Shown: positions 22,026-32,982 of the stretch, piece by piece
Numbering within the stretch: the first letter of the stretch is position 1
Layout: each line of letters begins with the position of its first letter
Origin: Oscillospiraceae bacterium
GTDB taxonomy: Bacteria > Bacillota > Clostridia > Oscillospirales > Acutalibacteraceae
Reading direction: 5' to 3'
Length of the DNA stretch: 64,000 bases
Assembly: GCA_015066295.1 (NCBI GenBank)
Contig: SVOR01000003.1
Coordinates: 1 to 64,000 of the forward strand
The notes under the pieces: model-generated
What the model was told of the DNA's origin: nothing
Seen by the model: the letters and a program-made list of their open reading frames with translations, nothing else
Database searches by the model: none
Made by a program: the position numbers and the translations under genes

Positions 22026-24665
22026 ATGAAAAAAAGAATTTTAGCTATTATATTAGCATTAGCGATGCTAATAGGCGTTTGCCCGTTGGAAACTCTTGTT
22101 TGTGCGAAAGAAGCAATTTCTGCGGCTTTTACCCAAACGGTAGAGGGCAACCTCGATGAGCAAGAAACAATTGCCGAAGAGGTCTTCGTTATAGGCGAGG
22201 ATGAAAGTCGCCGTGACGAAACCACAAAGCACTACATTTTAAGCAACGGCAACCGAAAAGCCGTTAAATATTCACAGCCGGTACATTATAAAAATAACGG
22301 CAAATGGGTGGATATTGACAACACACTTGAATATGACGAAACAACCAACGAATATACCAACAAAGAAAATTCGTTTAAGGTTAATTTTAATAAAAATTCA
22401 GGCAGCGAAAAATTATTTGCCATTGAAAATAGCGGCTACACAATGTCTTGGAAATACAAGTCAAATTCGAGCAATAGGTCGGTAGTTAACGGTAAACCTC
22501 AGGCAAATAAGAGCGAAAATCTTAACGGCTTTGAAAAATACACCGAAAAGGTTAATAGCAAGATAAAATATGAGGGCTTTGAAGACAAAAGCACGCTCGA
22601 GTATGTTGTAACCGCTACGGGTGTTAAAGAAAACATAATTTTACAGTCGGCTGACTGTAAAAACGAATTTACATTTGAGGTTAAAGCTGACGGCTTAAAC
22701 CTAACAAAAAATGAAGACGGCAGTATTACTTTCACCTCTAAAGAAACAAACGAAGTGGTGTTCTATATTCCTGCGCCATTTATGTATGATGCAAACAACG
22801 AAATATCATACGACGTAGAGTATAACATTATTTCAAAAAATAAGAAGCATACATTAACCTTGTCGGCAGACCGCGAGTGGCTTGACAGTGCCGACAGAGC
22901 CTATCCCGTAACCATTGACCCTGTTGTTGAAACACAACAGAAAAAATCGACAATTGCATCAACCTTTGTTTCGAGCGAAATGCCAAGCACCAATTTTGGC
23001 AACGCTGGTGACGCCTATGTTGGTGTTGAATCAGCGAATTACGGAATTTGCCGTTCTCTATTCAAAATTCCGTTACCAAGCTTAAACAAGGGCGATATGG
23101 TTGTTGGTGCATATATGGGACTTTATTTGCATAATAACAGCTTTTACACAAGCAGTATGCCAGACAAGCAAATCAATGCGCATGCCATAACTAAATCTTG
23201 GAACGAAACAAGTGTAACTTGGAACTCAAACGTTACGTACGATAGTGTTGTATTGGACTATAATTACATAAAACGAAGCGAAACCAGTGGCTCACTTTGG
23301 TTAAAACAGTTTGATATAACACGAACAGTTAAAGGCTGGTATGAGGGCACTTCTACCAACTACGGTATTATGATTAAGGCGGCGGCAGAGACGGGTAGTA
23401 ACGCCGACGTTGCGGCGCGCTCATGCTTCTGGACCGAAAATCAAGACGGGTCATCTGATTTATATCCTTTTATTGCCATTGAATATCGCAACAACAAGGG
23501 CTTAGAAGATTATTGGAGTTATACAACTGCAGGTGCAGAGGATGCAGGAACCGCATATATTAACGATTTTACGGGCAACCTTGTGTTTGCTAATACTATT
23601 GCATCAAGCAGTAGTGAATTGGGTGCTCTATCAATACAATTAGTATATAACGGATATGTTGCCGGCACAAAGTTTGTTGCAGCAAAGGGCAACAATATGA
23701 CGACCACCGTTGGACAAGGATGGCGACTTAACGTGCTGCAAACCGTTAGGCCGTCAAGCGTTTATAATTTAAGTGGTAGTGCCGCTACTAATTATCCATA
23801 CGTATACGAGGATAGCGACGGCACCGAACACTATTTTTATAAAGATACCTCGTCGGGTACAACCAAATACGTAGACGAGGATGGCTTAGGTCTTACCTTG
23901 TCTTTGGGAACAAGCTCTGTAAATTGGAAATACCGTATTACAGACAAAGCAGATAACAAATACTATTTCAATTCGGTAGGTAACCTTTATGTTATAAAGG
24001 ATGCCAACGGTAATGAACAATTAAGAGCAACCTACGATTCAACAAATAAGAGGATTTTAACCGCAAAAGATGCGGCAGGTCACCTATTCTCGTTTACCTA
24101 TACCAATGATTATATTACCAAAATCACCGACCCCGCTATGCGTGAAACCTCGTTTTATTACGGTGGTGTAGGCAGAACTACGACCGTCACATTCAACGAC
24201 GGCACCTATGCTCAATATGAATATGATAGTGACGGATGCTTAACTAAAGCAATCGCAAGTAGCGGATATACCATTGAATTTACCTATACAGAAGGTTCAA
24301 AAGGCAAAAGAGTTGCTAGTGTTTTTGAAAAAGGCGAAACAACCGAGAACCCCGGTTCTGAAGATGGTCAGATGATAACCTTTGACAGAGCACAATATAA
24401 TACAACCATTATTCGCACTGCTGGTCTTGACGGCATACACAATACCGAGGATGCAAATTGCGGCGCCGACGACGTTATTACTGTTTTACAGTTTGATAAT
24501 GCAGGTCGTACAATTTCACAACAGTTGCGTTACGGTAGCGGTGAGGAAATAGGCGCGGGCGCATATACCTATACTTCGGCAAGTATGACACCTCTACACT
24601 TGGCTCTAAAAACAAGGTTGCAACAAGTGCCTCGCTTGGTAAAAATACTTACAATTTACTTATAG
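22026..24665 (+). CDS. secreted WapA-like RHS/DNRLRE protein, N-terminal part (frameshifted)
   Basis: signal peptide; DNRLRE region STNFGNAGDAYVGVESANYGICRSLFKIPLPSLNKGDMVVGAYMGLYL; start of RHS/YD repeats; frame lost near 24585. Confidence 0.88.
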   Translation: MKKRILAIILALAMLIGVCPLETLVCAKEAISAAFTQTVEGNLDEQETIAEEVFVIGEDESRRDETTKHYILSNGNRKAVKYSQPVHYKNNGKWVDIDNTLEYDETTNEYTNKENSFKVNFNKNSGSEKLFAIENSGYTMSWKYKSNSSNRSVVNGKPQANKSENLNGFEKYTEKVNSKIKYEGFEDKSTLEYVVTATGVKENIILQSADCKNEFTFEVKADGLNLTKNEDGSITFTSKETNEVVFYIPAPFMYDANNEISYDVEYNIISKNKKHTLTLSADREWLDSADRAYPVTIDPVVETQQKKSTIASTFVSSEMPSTNFGNAGDAYVGVESANYGICRSLFKIPLPSLNKGDMVVGAYMGLYLHNNSFYTSSMPDKQINAHAITKSWNETSVTWNSNVTYDSVVLDYNYIKRSETSGSLWLKQFDITRTVKGWYEGTSTNYGIMIKAAAETGSNADVAARSCFWTENQDGSSDLYPFIAIEYRNNKGLEDYWSYTTAGAEDAGTAYINDFTGNLVFANTIASSSSELGALSIQLVYNGYVAGTKFVAAKGNNMTTTVGQGWRLNVLQTVRPSSVYNLSGSAATNYPYVYEDSDGTEHYFYKDTSSGTTKYVDEDGLGLTLSLGTSSVNWKYRITDKADNKYYFNSVGNLYVIKDANGNEQLRATYDSTNKRILTAKDAAGHLFSFTYTNDYITKITDPAMRETSFYYGGVGRTTTVTFNDGTYAQYEYDSDGCLTKAIASSGYTIEFTYTEGSKGKRVASVFEKGETTENPGSEDGQMITFDRAQYNTTIIRTAGLDGIHNTEDANCGADDVITVLQFDNAGRTISQQLRYGSGEEIGAGAYTYTSASMTPLHLALKTRLQQVPRLVKILTIYL

Positions 24666-24736
24666 GCGGCAACGGCGAGGATGCAAGTCTTTGGGAAAGC
24701 GTAATTGGAGATACCATCACAGGCACAACAACGGCG

Positions 24737-27700
24737 GTGAGCACACAAAAATATATGGGTGCAAAATCGCTGGAAATAAAAAATACAGCTTTGACGGATG
24801 GTGGCGTTAGCTTTTTAAGACAAAGGGTTAATAAATTTGAAATCGGCAAAAAATACACCCTTTCGGCATACGTTAAAACGGTTGGCCTCGCAAGTGTTGA
24901 CGGCATAGTATCGCCAAACGACTATAAAGGCGCATATATTCAGGTTAATGCCTGTGATTCGTCGGGCACCGCGATAGCCGAAGCGTATTCGGAATTATTA
25001 ACCGAGGATACCGACAAAGACATTAACAACGGCTTCAGAAGATTGTCGGCAACCATAGAAATCCCTGAAAATACGGCGCAAATAAGGGTTTATGTGGCAC
25101 TTAGAGATATGACGGGCTCGGCATACTTTGATTGTATCCAGCTTGAAGAGGGTGATGTCGCCAGCACCTATAATATGCTTGAAAATGCAAGCTTTGAAAC
25201 CACGTCGGGCGGTTTGCCGACCAAGTGGACGGTTAAAAACATTACCTACAGTATATCCGACGATACCGTTAAACAGGGCTTCAGCACTGCGACCAAAAAA
25301 CATGGCGCCGGTTCAATGCGTATACTTGGCTCGGCAAGCACACAAAAGCATATTTATCAGCGTGTGCCCGTTGAACCTAACGATAACGATACGTATATTG
25401 TAAGCGGTTGGGCAAATGCGTATGCCGTCAGCAATGTGTTACATTCGGCGAATTTTGATATCTGTCCCGAGGTTAAATATACAAAAACCGATGCAAGCGG
25501 TACCAAAACTACGGTTTACCAAAAGAAAACCGCGGCAAAATTCAATACTTCCGTAACAGGTTGGCAATATAGCGCCAGCTCGTTCTCGCTTAAATATACG
25601 GGTGGTGAATCGGGCTGTACATATAAACCAGAGATGGTTACCGTAATAGTTAGATATTACAATCAGGCAAATAGGGTTTACTTCGACCACATTATGCTTT
25701 GCAAGGAGCCCGCATCAACCTATACCTACGATAAAAAGGGTAACGTTGTTTCTGTAGCGGCAAACGGCGAGCAAAGCACAAACTCGGTATATGATGATAA
25801 TAACGACCTTGTTTCATACACCGATACGGTGGGCAACAAAACAGAACTGCTTTATAACGACTATCATCAATTGATACGTACAATAACACCAAAAGGTGTA
25901 TTTATCGTTAATGGTTATAACGATAACGGCACCTACAGGGCTACCGAAAAACGCAACAAAGCGAGCGCTGCAAACGCAACCCTGACTATAAGAACCCATC
26001 AGGATTATCATACCGATGATACAAGCACCGCAGTAAAGGAAAATGCCTACGTAAAATCGGTTTATGACGAGCACGGCAGAGCATCGGCGACCTATACTTA
26101 TGACTATGCTTCGGGTGCCGTAACCTCGGTTACCGATGCCAAGAATACCGAAACAGTTAACACCTATAACGATGATTTCACCCTTTTAACCGCAGTTCAA
26201 ACAGGCAATAGCAAGGTTTCTTATACATACAAAGAGGGTAGCAGTATAGTAACTTCCATATTGTTTGGTTCGGCGGCAAAAAATGAGCAGTATAGTTTTG
26301 AATATGATAATTTTGGTCGTGTAACGGCTACTAAGGTGGACAATACCGCCCTTGCAACCAATACCTATGCACCACGTAATGGTGCGCTCACCTTGACAAC
26401 CTACGGTAACGGTGATACAATAGGTTATAGATACAATCGTTTAGGTCTTGTTGACCAGACCGTACGCACTGATGGCGACAATGTAAGAACATTTAATTGG
26501 GCATATTCGTCGGTAGGTGTGTTATTAAGTCATACTGATAGCGCAAATAACCGCAAATATAATTACGACTATGACTCATTAGGCAGACTTATCCGTCAAG
26601 AAATTCGCACACAGGATAATTCGGGTCATATCGGTTTTGTTGAGCAGGGTTATGATTTACGCAACAACATAAACAAACTTATCCTTACCATCGGTAGCAC
26701 AACGGTTAAGCAAAACTATAGTTATTCAGCATATAGCAAAAACGATGCCGACGGTAATGCTATTGCAAATAGTTCTGCAAGTTATGCTAAGGATAATTTG
26801 CCTACGCTTTATGAAATAGAGTCAGGAGCATATGCTACCTATACCTATGACTCAATAAACCGACTTAACAAGCGTACACTTTCAACCGACAGACCAATAT
26901 ACAACAACTATGTATACTGGCTGTCTGATAGAAATACCGCCGATACCGTTGACCTTTACAGAACAACACAGCTATTAAGGGAAATTGTAGACAACACAGC
27001 GTATGACTACACCTATGATGTATCGGGTAATATAACAGCTATATCTAAAGCAGAACGAGCTGAAACTAATACCGATGCAATTGAAATTACAGGCTCGGCA
27101 GAATACCGTTCATACGCTTACGATAACCTGAATCAATTAATACGTGAAAACAACACAAGTAATGGTAAAACAACCGTATTTGCTTATGATGAGTTAGGTA
27201 ATATTACTTCAAAAACCGAGTATTCTTATACCACAGGCGATTTAGGCGCTGTAAACAAAACTATACTTTACGGCTACTCAAACGACGGTAAACAAGGCTG
27301 GAATAATCTGCTTACCTCGGTTGACCTTAACGGTGACGGTGTTATTACCGCTAATGAGCAGATAAGCTATGATGAAATAGGCAATCCTACAAGCTATCTT
27401 GGTAATACACTTGCTTGGGATGGCAGACAATTAACAAACTATAATGATATTATCTACAGCTACGATGCTGACGGTATCAGAGCAAGTAAAACCGCAGATA
27501 ATATTAAGACCGAATATTACTACGTAGGCGACGTAATACATTACCAGGTATCTACAGATATTACTACGGGTGAAAAGGTAAACGAATTATACTTCTTGTA
27601 TGATAGTTACGGTCACCTTACCGCAATTAAACTTATTACCGGTGAATCTAACGACATATACTACGTAACCACCAATATGCAGGGTGACGTACTGGGCATC

Positions 27701-28522
27701 TACACCGCAGGCGGCGATTTAATAACCGCTTATGATTATGATGCCTGGGGCAACTGTACTGCTACTAATTATATTGCCGAACATAGCCTAATTGGCGAAA
27801 TTAACCCAATTAGATACAGGGGTTATTATTACGATGTTGATACAGGGCTGTATTACTGTAATAGTCGGTATTATGATGCTAATACAGGTAGGTTTATCAA
27901 CGGCGATTCGCAACTTAATACGTCGCTTGGTGTTTTAGGTTGCAACATGTATGCTTATTGCTTAAACAATCCAGTAAGAAAAGCTGATTATGATGGTAAA
28001 AAGCCTGGAGATTTATTCGATACTATAGATGCGGCAGCAATTGATTTTGCAATGAATTATAATGCGCTTTCTATTGAATTCAATGTAGAACGCTCCGCAG
28101 CAATTTATGAAGTGGAGGCTACCGTTAGGAAGAAAATTTCGGTTACAAGAAATTTTCTTTGGTGGACCTGGACGGGGACCAAAACAGTGAAAACCACAAA
28201 AATATATTATGCATACAAAGTGAAACGACCTGGTAACTCAGAGGAAACAACGGCACCTCAAGCACCTGTAGGAAAGAAAAGAGTGGCTATTATACATACA
28301 CATGCGGCATATAGCAATGAACCGGGACACAGCAATGAGTTTTTTTCGCCACAGGATAAAATCACCGCGGGTAATGTGGGCGCGAAAGGCGTGCTGTTTT
28401 CTTATTTAGTTACGCCAAATGGAATAGTAAAAAGATTGGATATTAAAGGTGACACTGGAATTGTTCCAATATTTTATTATGCACCATACGACCCGTATCA
28501 CCCTGCTAGAAGGAGAGGCTAA
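24737..28522 (+). CDS. RHS core and C-terminal toxin region (continuation of 22026 after frameshift)
   Basis: YD repeats; IRYRGYYYDVDTGLYYCNSRYYDANTGRFINGD core end; C-terminus AIIHTHAAYSNEPGHSNEFFSPQDKITAGNVGAKGVLFSYLVTPNGIVKRLD resembles DUF4329/JAB-like. Confidence 0.88.
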   Translation: MSTQKYMGAKSLEIKNTALTDGGVSFLRQRVNKFEIGKKYTLSAYVKTVGLASVDGIVSPNDYKGAYIQVNACDSSGTAIAEAYSELLTEDTDKDINNGFRRLSATIEIPENTAQIRVYVALRDMTGSAYFDCIQLEEGDVASTYNMLENASFETTSGGLPTKWTVKNITYSISDDTVKQGFSTATKKHGAGSMRILGSASTQKHIYQRVPVEPNDNDTYIVSGWANAYAVSNVLHSANFDICPEVKYTKTDASGTKTTVYQKKTAAKFNTSVTGWQYSASSFSLKYTGGESGCTYKPEMVTVIVRYYNQANRVYFDHIMLCKEPASTYTYDKKGNVVSVAANGEQSTNSVYDDNNDLVSYTDTVGNKTELLYNDYHQLIRTITPKGVFIVNGYNDNGTYRATEKRNKASAANATLTIRTHQDYHTDDTSTAVKENAYVKSVYDEHGRASATYTYDYASGAVTSVTDAKNTETVNTYNDDFTLLTAVQTGNSKVSYTYKEGSSIVTSILFGSAAKNEQYSFEYDNFGRVTATKVDNTALATNTYAPRNGALTLTTYGNGDTIGYRYNRLGLVDQTVRTDGDNVRTFNWAYSSVGVLLSHTDSANNRKYNYDYDSLGRLIRQEIRTQDNSGHIGFVEQGYDLRNNINKLILTIGSTTVKQNYSYSAYSKNDADGNAIANSSASYAKDNLPTLYEIESGAYATYTYDSINRLNKRTLSTDRPIYNNYVYWLSDRNTADTVDLYRTTQLLREIVDNTAYDYTYDVSGNITAISKAERAETNTDAIEITGSAEYRSYAYDNLNQLIRENNTSNGKTTVFAYDELGNITSKTEYSYTTGDLGAVNKTILYGYSNDGKQGWNNLLTSVDLNGDGVITANEQISYDEIGNPTSYLGNTLAWDGRQLTNYNDIIYSYDADGIRASKTADNIKTEYYYVGDVIHYQVSTDITTGEKVNELYFLYDSYGHLTAIKLITGESNDIYYVTTNMQGDVLGIYTAGGDLITAYDYDAWGNCTATNYIAEHSLIGEINPIRYRGYYYDVDTGLYYCNSRYYDANTGRFINGDSQLNTSLGVLGCNMYAYCLNNPVRKADYDGKKPGDLFDTIDAAAIDFAMNYNALSIEFNVERSAAIYEVEATVRKKISVTRNFLWWTWTGTKTVKTTKIYYAYKVKRPGNSEETTAPQAPVGKKRVAIIHTHAAYSNEPGHSNEFFSPQDKITAGNVGAKGVLFSYLVTPNGIVKRLDIKGDTGIVPIFYYAPYDPYHPARRRG

Positions 28523-28914
28523 TGAAAAATAAGATAATAATCAACGTTTTGGCGCTAGTTGTGATTATTGCGGTTTCTTTCAGTAGCGGAATGTTGTTAT
28601 CAAAAAAAAGGTTGACAAATGAGGAAATAGGAACCTTTGAATTAACGGACTATACCGAACAAATAGAAAAATTCTCGTCTGAATATTGTTGGGAAATGCC
28701 TTTAAGTAACTCCCATACCGTTAAAGATTTTGCGGTAATAGACTTTTCACTTCGTTTAGATGTTAAGGTAAAGAATTTAAAAGTCTCTTATGATGATGGA
28801 AATGATACATGGTATGTTTGTGCAGATGTGTGTAATAAACGTCGTTCTGCCTCAACGGCACATATTTTTTATCGTGCACAAGATGCTAAAATTCTCGCAA
28901 TATGGTGCCAATAA
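28522..28914 (+). CDS. putative membrane-anchored NTF2-like immunity protein 1
   Basis: ATG overlaps the RHS stop; N-terminal TM; LKVSYDDGNDTWYVCADV...AKILAIWCQ; paralogous to the next gene. Confidence 0.6.
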   Translation: MKNKIIINVLALVVIIAVSFSSGMLLSKKRLTNEEIGTFELTDYTEQIEKFSSEYCWEMPLSNSHTVKDFAVIDFSLRLDVKVKNLKVSYDDGNDTWYVCADVCNKRRSASTAHIFYRAQDAKILAIWCQ

Positions 28915-28935
28915 ACTACTAAAAGGGGGCATCCC

Positions 28936-29325
28936 ATGAAAAAGAAGATAATAACCAATGTTTTGATAATGGTTGTAATAGTTGCACTTTCTTTTTGGGC
29001 AGGTGTGTTAGTGAAGCGTTCAAAAGCAAATGCCGAAACAATAGGTGTTTTTAAATTAGAATATTGCGAAGAAGTTTTAGCTTACGGCGATGCTGGTTTA
29101 GAAGCATACGGACCGATTGACACCCCCGACGACGCAAAGGCGGCGGCAAAGTATTATTTTGAAAAATATCGTAAACTTCGCGACCCGTTGGCAGTAGCTT
29201 ACGATGCCGAAAGTAAAACGTGGTATATTAGAAATATAACTCCCAAAAATCAGCTTGGTGGAGGAATGAATTTGATAATTACCGCCGACGAAGGCAAAGT
29301 GCTGTCGATTTGGTTTGAAAAGTGA
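28936..29325 (+). CDS. putative membrane-anchored NTF2-fold immunity protein 2
   Basis: DTPDDAKAAAKYYFEKYRKLRDPLAVAYDAESKTWYIRNITPKNQLGGGMNLIITADEGKVLSIWFEK resembles the NTF2-fold immunity family. Confidence 0.68.
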   Translation: MKKKIITNVLIMVVIVALSFWAGVLVKRSKANAETIGVFKLEYCEEVLAYGDAGLEAYGPIDTPDDAKAAAKYYFEKYRKLRDPLAVAYDAESKTWYIRNITPKNQLGGGMNLIITADEGKVLSIWFEK

Positions 29326-29333
29326 GGGGTAGA

Positions 29334-29457
29334 ACACAGGGGACGGTTCTGTGTGTTGACAAATTTCAGATAATTTAAAAATGCTTGACCTTTAAAGGTC
29401 AAGCATTTTTTTATATTTATCGCAAATAATATTTTTGGTGATTTGATGAAAAATTTT
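29334..29457 (+). repeat. left copy of ~123-bp direct duplication flanking the island
   Basis: acacaggggacggttctgtgtgttgacaaatttcagataatttaaaaatgcttgacctttaaaggtcaagcattttttt...ttggtgatttgatgaaaaatttt; right copy 32860-32982. Confidence 0.9.
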
Positions 29458-29783
29458 TGCACACAAGGGGACGGTTCTATTGGCACACAAGGGGACGGTT
29501 CTATTGTGTTGACAAAGATCGCGTTCAATGGTATAATTTATTAGGGTGATAAATATGCCAGAGCACACAAGGGGACGGTTCTCTTGTGTGAACCTAAGCA
29601 CACAAGGGGACGGTTCTATTGTGTTGACAGCACACAAGGGGACGGTTCTATTGTGTTGACAAAGATCGCGTTCAATGGTATAATTTATTAGCAGGAACAC
29701 AGGGGACGGTTCTGTGTGTTGACAAATTCAGAGGAGACAAGGGGACGGTTCGATGCACACAAGGGGACGGTTCTATTGTGTTG
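29334..29783 (+). repeat. cluster of nine REP-like hairpins (ACACAAGGGGACGGTTCTATTGTGT)
   Basis: copies at about 29334, 29459, 29483, 29563, 29598, 29630, 29696, 29736 and 29755. Confidence 0.92.
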
Positions 29784-29809
29784 ACAAAGATCGCGTTCAA
29801 TGGTATAAT
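29781..29809 (+). promoter_or_regulatory. consensus promoter of the RAYT gene
   Basis: TTGACA-N17-TATAAT; the -35 is donated by the end of the REP-like hairpin; same block at 29509-29537 and 29656-29684. Confidence 0.8.
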
Positions 29810-29826
29810 TTATTAGGGTGATAAAT

Positions 29827-30570
29827 ATGCCAAGAGCAGCACGTAGAAAAAGTGAAAGCGGAATATATCATATAATACTTCGCGGAATAAATAAGCAAGT
29901 GATTTTTGAAGATGAAGAGGATTTTTCTAAATTTTTAGAAACACTTAAAAACTATAAGGCAATAAGTGAGTATAAAATATTCGCTTATTGCCTTATGTCA
30001 AATCATATACATTTGCTTTTAAAAGTAGAAAAAGAAGATTTAGATTTGATAATGAAACGAATAGCCGGCAGTTATGTTTATTGGTATAACTGGAAATATA
30101 AACGGAAAGGCCATTTATTTCAGGACAGATTTAAAAGTGAGCCGGTTGATGATGATGCATATTTTTTAACGGTTATCCGATATATTCACCAAAATCCTAT
30201 AAAAGCAGGTGTTAGTAAATTTATTGACAGATATAAATACAGTAGTTATAATAATTATGTTGAAACTCCTGAATTTGTTGATACGGATTTCTGTTTAAGT
30301 ATGATAGATTTAGAACAATTCATACAATTTAACAAAGAGTATAATGATGATGTATGTCTTGAACTCGAAGCTGATGATTATAGAATGACGGATGAAGAAG
30401 CAAGGACTATAATTAAAAAGGTTTCCAAATGCAATACTGCTGCAGAGTTTCAGTTGTTATCTATTGATAAAAGAAATAAATTTATAAAAATTTTAAGGGA
30501 GCAAGGTTTGTCGATAAGACAAATTTCAAGGCTGACGGGTATTAGTTTTAATATTGTCAGAAAATTTTAG
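29827..30570 (+). mobile_element. RAYT (REP-associated Y1 tyrosine transposase) with C-terminal HTH
   Basis: MPRAARRKSESGIYHIILRGINKQ; HUH motif NHIHLLLK; GHLFQDRFKSEPVDDDAYFLTVIRYIHQNPIKAG; REP-like hairpins directly flank it (29755 in +, 30571-30598 inverted). Confidence 0.93.
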
Positions 30571-30600
30571 AACACAATAGAACCGTCCCCTTGTGTTTGC

Positions 30601-30777
30601 AATCCATCGGCAGGTACACAATTAACCAATATCACGTTGAATGACCCACGCTGGCCTTCATCTGAGGGATGGGTTAAAATGCAACAGATAGTACCTACAT
30701 CTCAGGGGAACATTAACATTCATTACGTTTATAATCAAACCTTGAAAATATTTGATGATTTCAAGTTCAAGCCATAG
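30601..30777 (+). pseudogene. orphan RHS toxin C-terminal fragment 1
   Basis: open frame without start: NPSAGTQLTNITLNDPRWPSSEGWVKMQQIVPTSQGNINIHYVYNQTLKIFDDFKFKP*; begins at the edge of a REP-like copy. Confidence 0.72.
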
Positions 30778-30797
30778 CTTAAAGAAGGAGCAATACA

Positions 30798-31223
30798 GTG
30801 AAAGATAATATTATATTTAGCAAAATATGGGAAGATGATGACATAATAGAATTAAAAGTTGTGTGTTCCTCTCCCGTGGCAACAATCACATCACAAATAT
30901 ATGTTTCGGATTCTTTAATTGATGAATTGATTTGCCAAATTAAGCAATTTCTTGATGGGAATATCGAAGAGGGCTTGTGGGCAAACGAAGATAAAGGAAA
31001 TGATTCGACGGCGTGTGTATCATTGCGATTATTTAGTAAAGACAAACTAGGGCATATCATTATCGAAGTGTTTGCGGAACTCGACGATGGAGGAAACTTC
31101 ACTGAACACAATTGTTGCTTTTTCGTTGATACTGAGTATGGTTTATTAATGAAATTTTGCGAAAGTTTAATTTGCTTAAAGAACCATCCAGTGGGATATG
31201 AAATTCGCTTAAATGACAATTAA
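30798..31223 (+). CDS. putative immunity protein for orphan C-terminus 1
   Basis: 141-aa acidic protein directly downstream of the C-terminal fragment. Confidence 0.55.
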   Translation: MKDNIIFSKIWEDDDIIELKVVCSSPVATITSQIYVSDSLIDELICQIKQFLDGNIEEGLWANEDKGNDSTACVSLRLFSKDKLGHIIIEVFAELDDGGNFTEHNCCFFVDTEYGLLMKFCESLICLKNHPVGYEIRLNDN

Positions 31224-31266
31224 AGGGGAACACAGGGGGAACACAGGGGACGGTTCTGTGTGTTGA

Positions 31267-31574
31267 CCGACCGCTCAATTAAGTGACATTATTTTAAGGG
31301 TAGTTAAGTTCGCTTAACTACCCTTTTTTACGGCACGCGTAGCGGTCTGTTAAACTTGACAACCTACGGCAACGGTGATACAATAAATTACAGATATAAC
31401 CGTTTGGGTCTAGTTGACCATAAGCACACAAGGGGACGGTTCTCTTGTGTGAACCTTAGGTGGGATTAAAATGAGTACAGAAAAAATAAAAAATTTACTT
31501 GGAGACAGAGTAGAAATATTAGAAATGACTATTAAAAATGTTGATAATCAACTGCAATTGCTGTTGAAAACAGA
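31267..31574 (+). repeat. ~308-bp duplicated unit, copy 1 (terminator + RHS-core fragment + REP-like hairpin + immunity gene 5' end)
   Basis: near-identical to 31604-31912 (about 4 mismatches by eye); contains LTTYGNGDTINYRYNRLGLVDH. Confidence 0.9.
31471..31574 (+). pseudogene. truncated copy of the 31810 gene, interrupted by a REP-like copy
   Basis: identical first ~34 codons MSTEKIKNLLGDRVEILEMTIKNVDNQLQLLLKT, then gataacacaaggggacggttctattgtgttgg. Confidence 0.8.
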
Positions 31575-31603
31575 TAACACAAGGGGACGGTTCTATTGTG
31601 TTG

Positions 31604-31912
31604 GACCAACCGCTCGATTAAGTAACATTATTTTAAGGGTAGTTAAGTTCGCTTAACTACCCTTTCTTACGGCACGCGTAGCGGTCTGTTAAACTTGACA
31701 ACCTACGGCAACGGTGATACAATAAATTACAGATATAACCGTTTGGGTCTAGTTGACCATAAGCACACAAGGGGACGGTTCTCTTGTGTGAACCTTAGGT
31801 GGGATTAAAATGAGTACAGAAAAAATAAAAAATTTACTTGGAGACAGAGTAGAAATATTAGAAATGACTATTAAAAATGTTGATAATCAACTGCAATTGC
31901 TGTTGAAAACAC
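31604..31912 (+). repeat. ~308-bp duplicated unit, copy 2
   Basis: see copy 1. Confidence 0.9.
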
Positions 31913-32124
31913 AACACGAAGAAGATGTTCTTTTGATGTCCTTTTACAATGTTTCACGTTTTAAGATGGGAGAAATATCAACGCCTTTAGAAATACAGGG
32001 CTTTGAAATGGTTGACCATTCTATAGACGGTTGGGCAAAGGATTCTATATATGAGATTCGTGATTTCGAAGATGACAATATTAAATTTTTCTGTGAGTCC
32101 TTTAAAGTTGAGAGAACACAATAG
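31810..32124 (+). CDS. putative orphan immunity protein, 3' end disrupted by an inverted REP-like copy
   Basis: 104 aa; last codons (RTQ*) are read from agaacacaatagaaccgtcccc. Confidence 0.5.
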   Translation: MSTEKIKNLLGDRVEILEMTIKNVDNQLQLLLKTQHEEDVLLMSFYNVSRFKMGEISTPLEIQGFEMVDHSIDGWAKDSIYEIRDFEDDNIKFFCESFKVERTQ

Positions 32125-32142
32125 AACCGTCCCCTTGTGTTC
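32115..32142 (-). repeat. inverted REP-like copy
   Basis: aacacaatagaaccgtccccttgtgttc. Confidence 0.9.
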
Positions 32143-32145
32143 CTT

Positions 32146-32362
32146 GGGGGTCGGTAACTATATAGTGAATGTTGCTGTTCCCTCCGTCACAATTAATATC
32201 TTAGATAGACAAGGAAAGTTACCATATGACTATTATTCATATCCTTGGGAAGCAGAGGCTAACAAATTGGGTGGGGCTACACTTTCTCAAAAAGGGAGAA
32301 CTCCATTACCACAAGGAGAATATACTTCATATTGGAGTTTAGTGCAGTTGTTTTTTGAATAA
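32146..32362 (+). pseudogene. orphan RHS toxin C-terminal fragment 2
   Basis: VGNYIVNVAVPSVTINILDRQGKLPYDYYSYPWEAEANKLGGATLSQKGRTPLPQGEYTSYWSLVQLFFE*; PWEAEAN...GG resembles RHS-associated toxin C-termini; no own start. Confidence 0.68.
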
Positions 32363-32372
32363 GGAGGATATT

Positions 32373-32795
32373 ATGAAACAAATTAAGGTGTCACTTTGTA
32401 TACTGTGCACCGCTTTTATGCTTTTATGTTGTTCTTGCGGCTTATTTGGTGATCAAGAGTATGCGTGTGTGATTGACCATGTGGAGTCAATTGAAATTGT
32501 CAGGCTTGAAGAATATGTGCAAGAGGAATATAGATACGAATATACAGTACTGTCTAAAATAACAGATTGCACTACGTTTGTTGATAGGCTTAACAATATA
32601 AAGCACTCTGTCAATTGGGGTGAACCGAGTCAGTTTGATATTGGGTATGTTGTTATTAAAATCGAATATCTTAATGGTGATTACGAATTGCTCTATACCA
32701 ATGCGCAAATGTTTAATCGTTCTGGCGTAAATCAGTATGGATATTTCTTTTTTGACGATGAGCAGTTTAATTCTCTAATTTCTGATTATATATGA
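32373..32795 (+). CDS. putative lipoprotein immunity protein for orphan C-terminus 2
   Basis: aaggaggatatt ATG; lipobox LLCCSC; adjacent to the C-terminal fragment. Confidence 0.55.
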   Translation: MKQIKVSLCILCTAFMLLCCSCGLFGDQEYACVIDHVESIEIVRLEEYVQEEYRYEYTVLSKITDCTTFVDRLNNIKHSVNWGEPSQFDIGYVVIKIEYLNGDYELLYTNAQMFNRSGVNQYGYFFFDDEQFNSLISDYI

Positions 32796-32859
32796 GGAAG
32801 AACGAGTGGAGAACACAGGGGACGGTTCTATTGTCTCCAAAAACAAAACTGAATAATAA

Positions 32860-32982
32860 ACACAGACGACGGTTCTGTGTGTTGACAAATTCAGATAATT
32901 AAAAAATGCTTGACCTTTAAAGGTCAAGCATTTTTTTATATTTATCGCAAATAATATTTTTGGTGATTTGATGAAAAATTTT
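32860..32982 (+). repeat. right copy of the island-flanking direct duplication
   Basis: matches 29334-29457 through the first codons of the TauE-like gene. Confidence 0.9.

What the first reader, a model, noticed from the sequence alone, without database searches (positions are those of the whole stretch)
29334..32982. RHS toxin cassette graveyard punctuated by REP-like hairpins and a RAYT transposase
Downstream of a full WapA-like RHS gene lies a ~3.5-kb island. It contains orphan C-terminus 1 plus putative immunity gene, two copies of an RHS-core fragment each with an immunity-like gene, and orphan C-terminus 2 plus a lipoprotein immunity gene. REP-like hairpins (acacaaGGGGACGGTTCTattgtgt) sit at many cassette boundaries: C-terminus 1 begins at a REP edge, and the 31810 gene ends inside one. 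A RAYT sits in the middle. Orphan rhs-CT/immunity modules are established. What may be new is a REP/RAYT system marking the breakpoints, which could make the hairpins recombination sites for toxin C-terminus shuffling.
Basis: partly seen in the sequence, partly recalled or inferred. Interest (0 to 1): 0.88.

Follow-up and report, generated by a model that had tools for sequence, protein, structure and literature searches.

The report
Toxin-immunity scrapyard jointed by mobile hairpins
Behind a toxin-delivery (RHS) gene of an uncultured Clostridia bacterium lies a row of worn-out toxin tails with their antidote genes, and most of the broken edges in it fall within 4 bases of a small mobile hairpin (REP) whose transposase gene sits in the middle; related bacteria also carry these hairpins beside their RHS genes far more often than chance would give.

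Summary
The window has 16 REP cores (GGGGACGGTTCT, up to 1 mismatch), all within 3.5 kb (0.11 expected); the rest of the 1.54-Mb genome has 6. Both orphan C-termini are real RHS-type toxin tails: CT1 homologues are fused to RHS cores and followed by homologues of its immunity gene; a CT2 homologue precedes a homologue of the lipoprotein gene. Seven of ten homology-defined junctions lie within 4 bp of a REP edge (8% expected). The pattern recurs: in 13 related genomes with both RHS and REP, 41 of 106 REPs lie within 6 kb of an RHS core (1.8 expected), and RAYT units sit directly behind RHS-immunity pairs in five other loci. In a sister species, modules with unrelated toxin/immunity genes share a 3' flank beginning in the last REP. 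Shuffling at REPs is only partly supported: RHS arrays occur in genomes without REPs; several RHS-REP genomes lack a detectable RAYT; the founding RHS-core joint is at a terminator; here REP joints truncate both toxins while both immunity genes stay open. Best reading: a selfish REP/RAYT element lodges behind RHS-immunity pairs, and its ends serve as joints for rearrangement and decay that spares immunity.

The parts
22026..28522 (+). Main RHS gene (DNRLRE domain, YD repeats, Rhs_assc_core 27737-27997, DUF4329 C-terminal domain); split into two frames by a frameshift near 24.59 kb
28522..29325 (+). Two tandem immunity-like genes (28522-28914 and 28936-29325) related to each other (29-31% identity); the second weakly like NTF2-fold immunity Imm-NTF2-2 (below cut-off)
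29333..29457 (.). Left copy of the island's flanking direct repeat: REP, terminator, start of the TauE-like gene, cut off at a REP edge
29461..29782 (.). REP cluster (7 cores at 29467-29763 plus one with a mismatch at 29741) with two truncated copies of the RAYT promoter/5' end (29510-29560, 29657-29691)
29824..30570 (+). RAYT (Y1/HuH REP-associated transposase), between inverted REPs at 29763(+) and 30579(-)
30571..30597 (-). REP at which CT1 begins
30598..30777 (+). Orphan C-terminus 1, 5'-truncated RHS/CdiA-type toxin tail
30798..31223 (+). Immunity gene of CT1 (intact frame)
31240..31264 (+). REP at the 3' end of the CT1 immunity gene, before the terminator
31265..31572 (+). Tandem unit copy 1: terminator, RHS-core scrap 31338-31420, REP 31432, truncated 5' part of the 31810-type gene
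31604..31911 (+). Tandem unit copy 2: terminator, RHS-core scrap 31677-31759, REP 31771, start of gene 31810
31810..32124 (+). Immunity-like gene (inferred from position), 3' end replaced by the REP at 32123(-)
   Evidence: no homologue found
32144..32362 (+). Orphan C-terminus 2, toxin tail that starts after the position of the HEYGH motif of its homologue
32373..32795 (+). Lipoprotein immunity gene of CT2 (intact frame)
32812..32982 (.). REPs 32818 and 32865 and right copy of the flanking repeat; the 32865 REP with its terminator is shared with the sister species

Best explanation
The island is the eroding tail of an RHS contact-toxin locus. Orphan toxin-tail/immunity modules accumulated behind the main RHS gene, as in known rhs and cdi loci. 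A REP/RAYT element (a short mobile hairpin family with its Y1 transposase) lodged between immunity genes and their terminators and multiplied there. REP edges then became joints of further rearrangement: deletions, tandem duplications and fusions. These joints cut off the RHS core and the front of both toxin tails, while both identified immunity genes stayed open, so the locus probably still gives protection without making those toxins. In the sister species the REP-terminator block caps modules with different cassettes, so it could also serve as the downstream homology arm for cassette exchange, with the RHS core as the upstream arm. Shown: gene identities, REP placement, recurrence in relatives, positions of the joints. 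Inferred: that REP recombination or RAYT cleavage causes the joints, that immunity is under selection, and that REPs serve as exchange arms.
For: 16 of 22 REPs of the genome in 3.5 kb. CT1 and CT2 confirmed by homologues with cognate immunity genes in the same order. Seven of ten homology ends within 4 bp of a REP edge against 8% of positions. RHS-REP association in relatives: 41 of 106 REPs within 6 kb of RHS, 1.8 expected. RHS-immunity-[REP-RAYT] in L064, L085, L088, L101, L187. Sister-species modules share the 3' flank from the last REP on. RAYT fragment 99.5% identical between species whose flanks are 79% identical, with identity ending at the REP.
Against: The ten junctions were picked by hand and some are nested or duplicated. 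REP-edge joints also occur without RHS (G013), so they may be a general trait of this element. Two genomes with RHS and many REPs have none near RHS (G108, G073). No within-species comparison was possible. Intact immunity frames could also reflect recent age rather than selection.
Confidence: 0.65

Rival explanations
1. REP/RAYT is an active cassette-shuffling system: RAYT cutting or REP-REP recombination exchanges toxin C-termini and loads new ones on the RHS gene.
For: REP is the 3' edge of variable cassettes in G075; RAYT unit recently mobile; recurrent position behind RHS-immunity pairs.
Against: REP-free arrays; RAYT not detected in four genomes with REPs at RHS; RHS-core 5' joint is at a terminator, not a REP; joints here truncate the toxins.
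Confidence: 0.15
2. Neutral landing ground: RHS islands are unselected DNA, so REPs pile up there as selfish insertions and the truncations are ordinary decay in the same DNA.
For: G040, G013 and G073 have many REPs away from RHS; immunity-like genes between REPs are dispensable DNA in part.
Against: Joints lie within 4 bp of REP edges far more often than REP coverage predicts; REP-poor genomes carry their few REPs at RHS. REP density per non-coding base over whole genomes was not measured.
Confidence: 0.15
3. Assembly artefact: REP-rich repeats made the assembler join unrelated pieces.
For: It is a MAG; sister-species contigs break at RHS cores, and contigs C5 and C42 overlap by exactly 114 bp.
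Against: The island is one contig with unique sequence between REPs; the same layout recurs in independent assemblies, including a complete isolate chromosome, Petroclostridium sp. X23.
Confidence: 0.05

Closest known systems
Orphan rhs-CT/rhsI and cdiA-CT/cdiI modules (Poole et al. 2011, PMC3150448)
   Same: Toxin-tail/immunity pairs behind a full-length gene, some retaining upstream core homology, some interrupted by mobile elements
   Different: There, exchange is proposed through conserved VENN/DPxGL-region sequence; no REP/RAYT at cassette edges is described in the passages read
Orphan immunity gene arrays left by effector displacement (Kirchberger et al. 2017, PMC5361080)
   Same: Toxin lost or replaced, immunity gene kept behind the locus
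   Different: Type VI effectors; breakpoints there are not confined to specific sites
REPtron: TnpAREP/RAYT gene flanked by REPs (PMC6006769)
   Same: Y1/HuH transposase gene between REPs, REPs elsewhere in the genome
   Different: No GT[AG]G foot seen at these REPs; REPtrons are described as not moving as a unit, whereas here the unit looks recently exchanged
porA deletion between REP clusters in Neisseria meningitidis (van der Ende 1999, as cited in PMC10210955)
   Same: REP clusters as joints of gene deletion (title in the reference list only)
   Different: Not a toxin/immunity locus; different repeat family

Membership tests
Orphan rhs-CT/immunity module | Toxin tail homologous to the C-terminus of an RHS protein, without its own RHS N-terminal part | tested here: met
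   CT1: L197 and L198 carry it fused to an RHS core. For CT2 the homologue's contig ends before any RHS core could be seen
Orphan rhs-CT/immunity module | Cognate immunity gene directly downstream | tested here: met
   Homologues in the same order for CT1 and CT2
Orphan rhs-CT/immunity module | Toxin activity and specific neutralisation | not testable with these tools
   Needs expression; both tails look truncated
RAYT / TnpAREP | Y1 transposase domain with HuH motif | tested here: met
   Y1_Tnp 1.2e-16; NHIHLLL in the sequence
RAYT / TnpAREP | NCBIfam REP_Tyr_transpos cut-off (80 bits) | tested here: inconclusive
   73 bits
RAYT / TnpAREP | Gene flanked by REPs of a family dispersed in the genome | tested here: met
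   Inverted REPs on both sides; six further copies elsewhere
RAYT / TnpAREP | GT[AG]G tetranucleotide at the REP foot (canonical subclasses) | tested here: not met
   None beside the 17 copies printed; atypical subclasses lack it
REP-mediated cassette exchange | Cassette gain or loss with crossovers inside the REP among strains | not tested
   One genome per species held; the sister-species module comparison is suggestive only

The most novel reading that the evidence does not exclude
REP hairpins and their RAYT transposase are a recurrent, functional partner of RHS toxin loci in Clostridia: RAYT cuts at REPs behind immunity genes and so drives both loss of toxins with retention of immunity and loading of new cassettes, with the REP-terminator block as the fixed 3' end of the variable region.
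Probability: 0.14. Interest if true: 0.85.

Novelty: new variant of a known kind. Interest (0 to 1): 0.6.

Why it matters
How orphan toxin/immunity arrays form, and what marks the downstream edge of a cassette, is an open question for RHS and CDI systems. A mobile hairpin family that recurs exactly there is a concrete, countable candidate for the downstream joint, and a possible route by which a cell drops the toxin and keeps the antidote. No paper in the searched library holds both 'RAYT' and 'Rhs'; that library lacks most subscription journals.

Tried and rejected
That REP/RAYT is needed for arrays: rejected, since REP-free arrays exist. That REPs are everywhere and sit at RHS by chance: rejected. 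Pfam/NCBIfam for the orphan tails: no hits; PDB for CT1: none; relatives were needed instead. CT1 in 150 family genomes: none besides its own; found only at order level. The REP-edge test over all self-alignments had too few alignments in G072, G094, G107 and G122 to be informative. Single 12-mer hits in G004 and G070 have weak arms and were left out of the second statistic; the G141 hit seen in L194 lies in a coding frame without arms, and G141 counts as a negative there. Searches failed on wrong frames.

Full report
WHAT IS THERE. The REP core GGGGACGGTTCT occurs 16 times (up to one mismatch), all between 29339 and 32829; shuffled sequence gives 0.11. The whole genome (a 1.54-Mb MAG) has only six more. 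The hairpin (arms ACACAA / TTGTGT) folds clearly better than shuffles in three of four copies tested. The RAYT gene (29824-30567) has a Y1 transposase domain, scores just under NCBI's REP-transposase cut-off, and lies between inverted REPs. The REP-RAYT-REP layout occurs in many clostridial loci.

THE ORPHANS ARE REAL TOXIN TAILS. No curated profile hits them, but relatives settle the matter. CT1 matches sequences in three genomes of the order (79, 69 and 59% identity): in two it is the end of an RHS-core protein and in one it lies in an orphan RHS module, and each time the next gene is a homologue of the window's 30798 gene. It also matches DUF637 proteins next to hemagglutinin-repeat genes on Arsenophonus plasmids. 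CT2 matches a domain with an HEYGH motif in G248, followed by a homologue of the 32373 lipoprotein. In the window CT2 begins just after the position of that motif, and CT1 keeps about its last 58 residues; both starts lie 2-3 bp from a REP edge. Both immunity genes are open. The toxins look dead and the immunity genes alive.

JOINTS. With REPs masked, homology ends were mapped inside the island. Seven of ten lie 2-4 bp from a REP edge: the copied TauE start (29457), two truncated copies of the RAYT 5' end (29560, 29691), the RHS-core scrap (31420), the first copy of the 31810-type gene (31572), CT1 and CT2. Only 8% of island positions are that close (binomial about 2e-6). The ten were chosen by hand and are partly nested, so the figure is indicative. 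Three ends are elsewhere: the 5' end of the RHS scrap and the two ends of a terminator repeat.

NATURAL EXPERIMENT. In the sister species G075 (goat rectum MAG RGIG3041; L099 and L051 give the same matches) the orthologous site between the HAD-hydrolase gene and TauE has no RHS. It holds REP, a RAYT cut off at its 5' end at a REP, REP, a lipoprotein gene, REP, terminator, TauE. Flanking genes are 79% identical; the RAYT piece is 99.5% identical over 390 bp and the identity stops at the REP. The unit therefore moved or was exchanged recently (inference). Elsewhere G075 carries RHS modules whose cores all begin at one breakpoint (CCTATG, joined to a terminator). Their toxin/immunity genes differ, yet the 3' flanks become alike from the last REP onward. 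There the variable cassette ends in a REP.

RECURRENCE. Among 13 other family genomes with both an RHS core and REPs, 41 of 106 REPs lie within 6 kb of an RHS core (1.8 expected), as do 11 of 55 clusters (0.9 expected) in 7 of 13 genomes (0.8 expected); none of 500,000 simulations reached the cluster or genome counts (one search includes two further genomes with weak hits; positions). Cluster counts were made by hand. RAYT units sit directly behind RHS-immunity pairs in L064, L085, L088, L101 and L187; in L064 a recombinase-like fragment lies between. Orphan tails in these islands include a PT-HINT pretoxin and a truncated DUF6973.

LIMITS OF THE SHUFFLING MODEL. RHS cores are found in 54 of 150 family genomes, and tandem RHS cores exist in genomes with no exact REP, such as G120, G050, G021 and G099; the G120 array read in full shows no REP and no comparable hairpin family. 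RAYT was not detected in G004, G070, G072 or G186, which have REPs at RHS (completeness 80-97%). Some genomes are rich in REPs away from RHS (G040, G013, G073), and REP-edge joints occur in G013 without RHS. So REP/RAYT is an overlay on a known kind of array, not its cause. Whether its joints also help exchange is open.

MECHANISM. Most likely REP/RAYT is a selfish element that settles between immunity gene and terminator. REP-REP recombination or RAYT nicking then makes edges that are joined illegitimately, giving duplications and deletions in which loss of toxin is tolerated and loss of immunity is not. The positions of joints are shown; the enzyme responsible and the selection are inferred. 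Known precedents are orphan rhs/cdi modules (PMC3150448), immunity arrays left by effector displacement (PMC5361080), REPtrons (PMC6006769) and REP-cluster deletion of porA in Neisseria (cited in PMC10210955). No held paper links RAYT and Rhs.

Noticed in passing
window 24545-24737: The main RHS gene changes reading frame once relative to the intact sister-species gene (L137); a real mutation or an assembly error cannot be told apart here.
   Followed up: partly
L072 14984-15118 and other places in genome G040: G040 has 320 exact copies of the REP core, many in arrays with a unit of about 20 bp and an orientation switch inside the array, without any RHS core. Unusual for REPs.
   Followed up: partly
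L193 1885-3525; L064 11409-11954: A large recombinase-like gene (G004), and a fragment with the same C-terminal sequence (G094), sit inside RHS islands, so other mobile elements use these islands too.
   Followed up: no
L191 3842-5273 (genome G066): A gene pair resembling the immunity pair behind an RHS tail in G004 lies between two REPs in a genome with no RHS core found, near S1-like and Mrp genes that also lie downstream of the window's island. Resemblance judged by eye.
   Followed up: partly
L093, L102, L110, L113, L115, L118 (Sporomusa silvacetica); L087, L107, L108 (Anaerovirgula multivorans): Several RAYT copies or fragments per genome, each with the REP about 66 bp upstream, suggest that the REP-RAYT-REP unit moves like an insertion sequence.
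   Followed up: no
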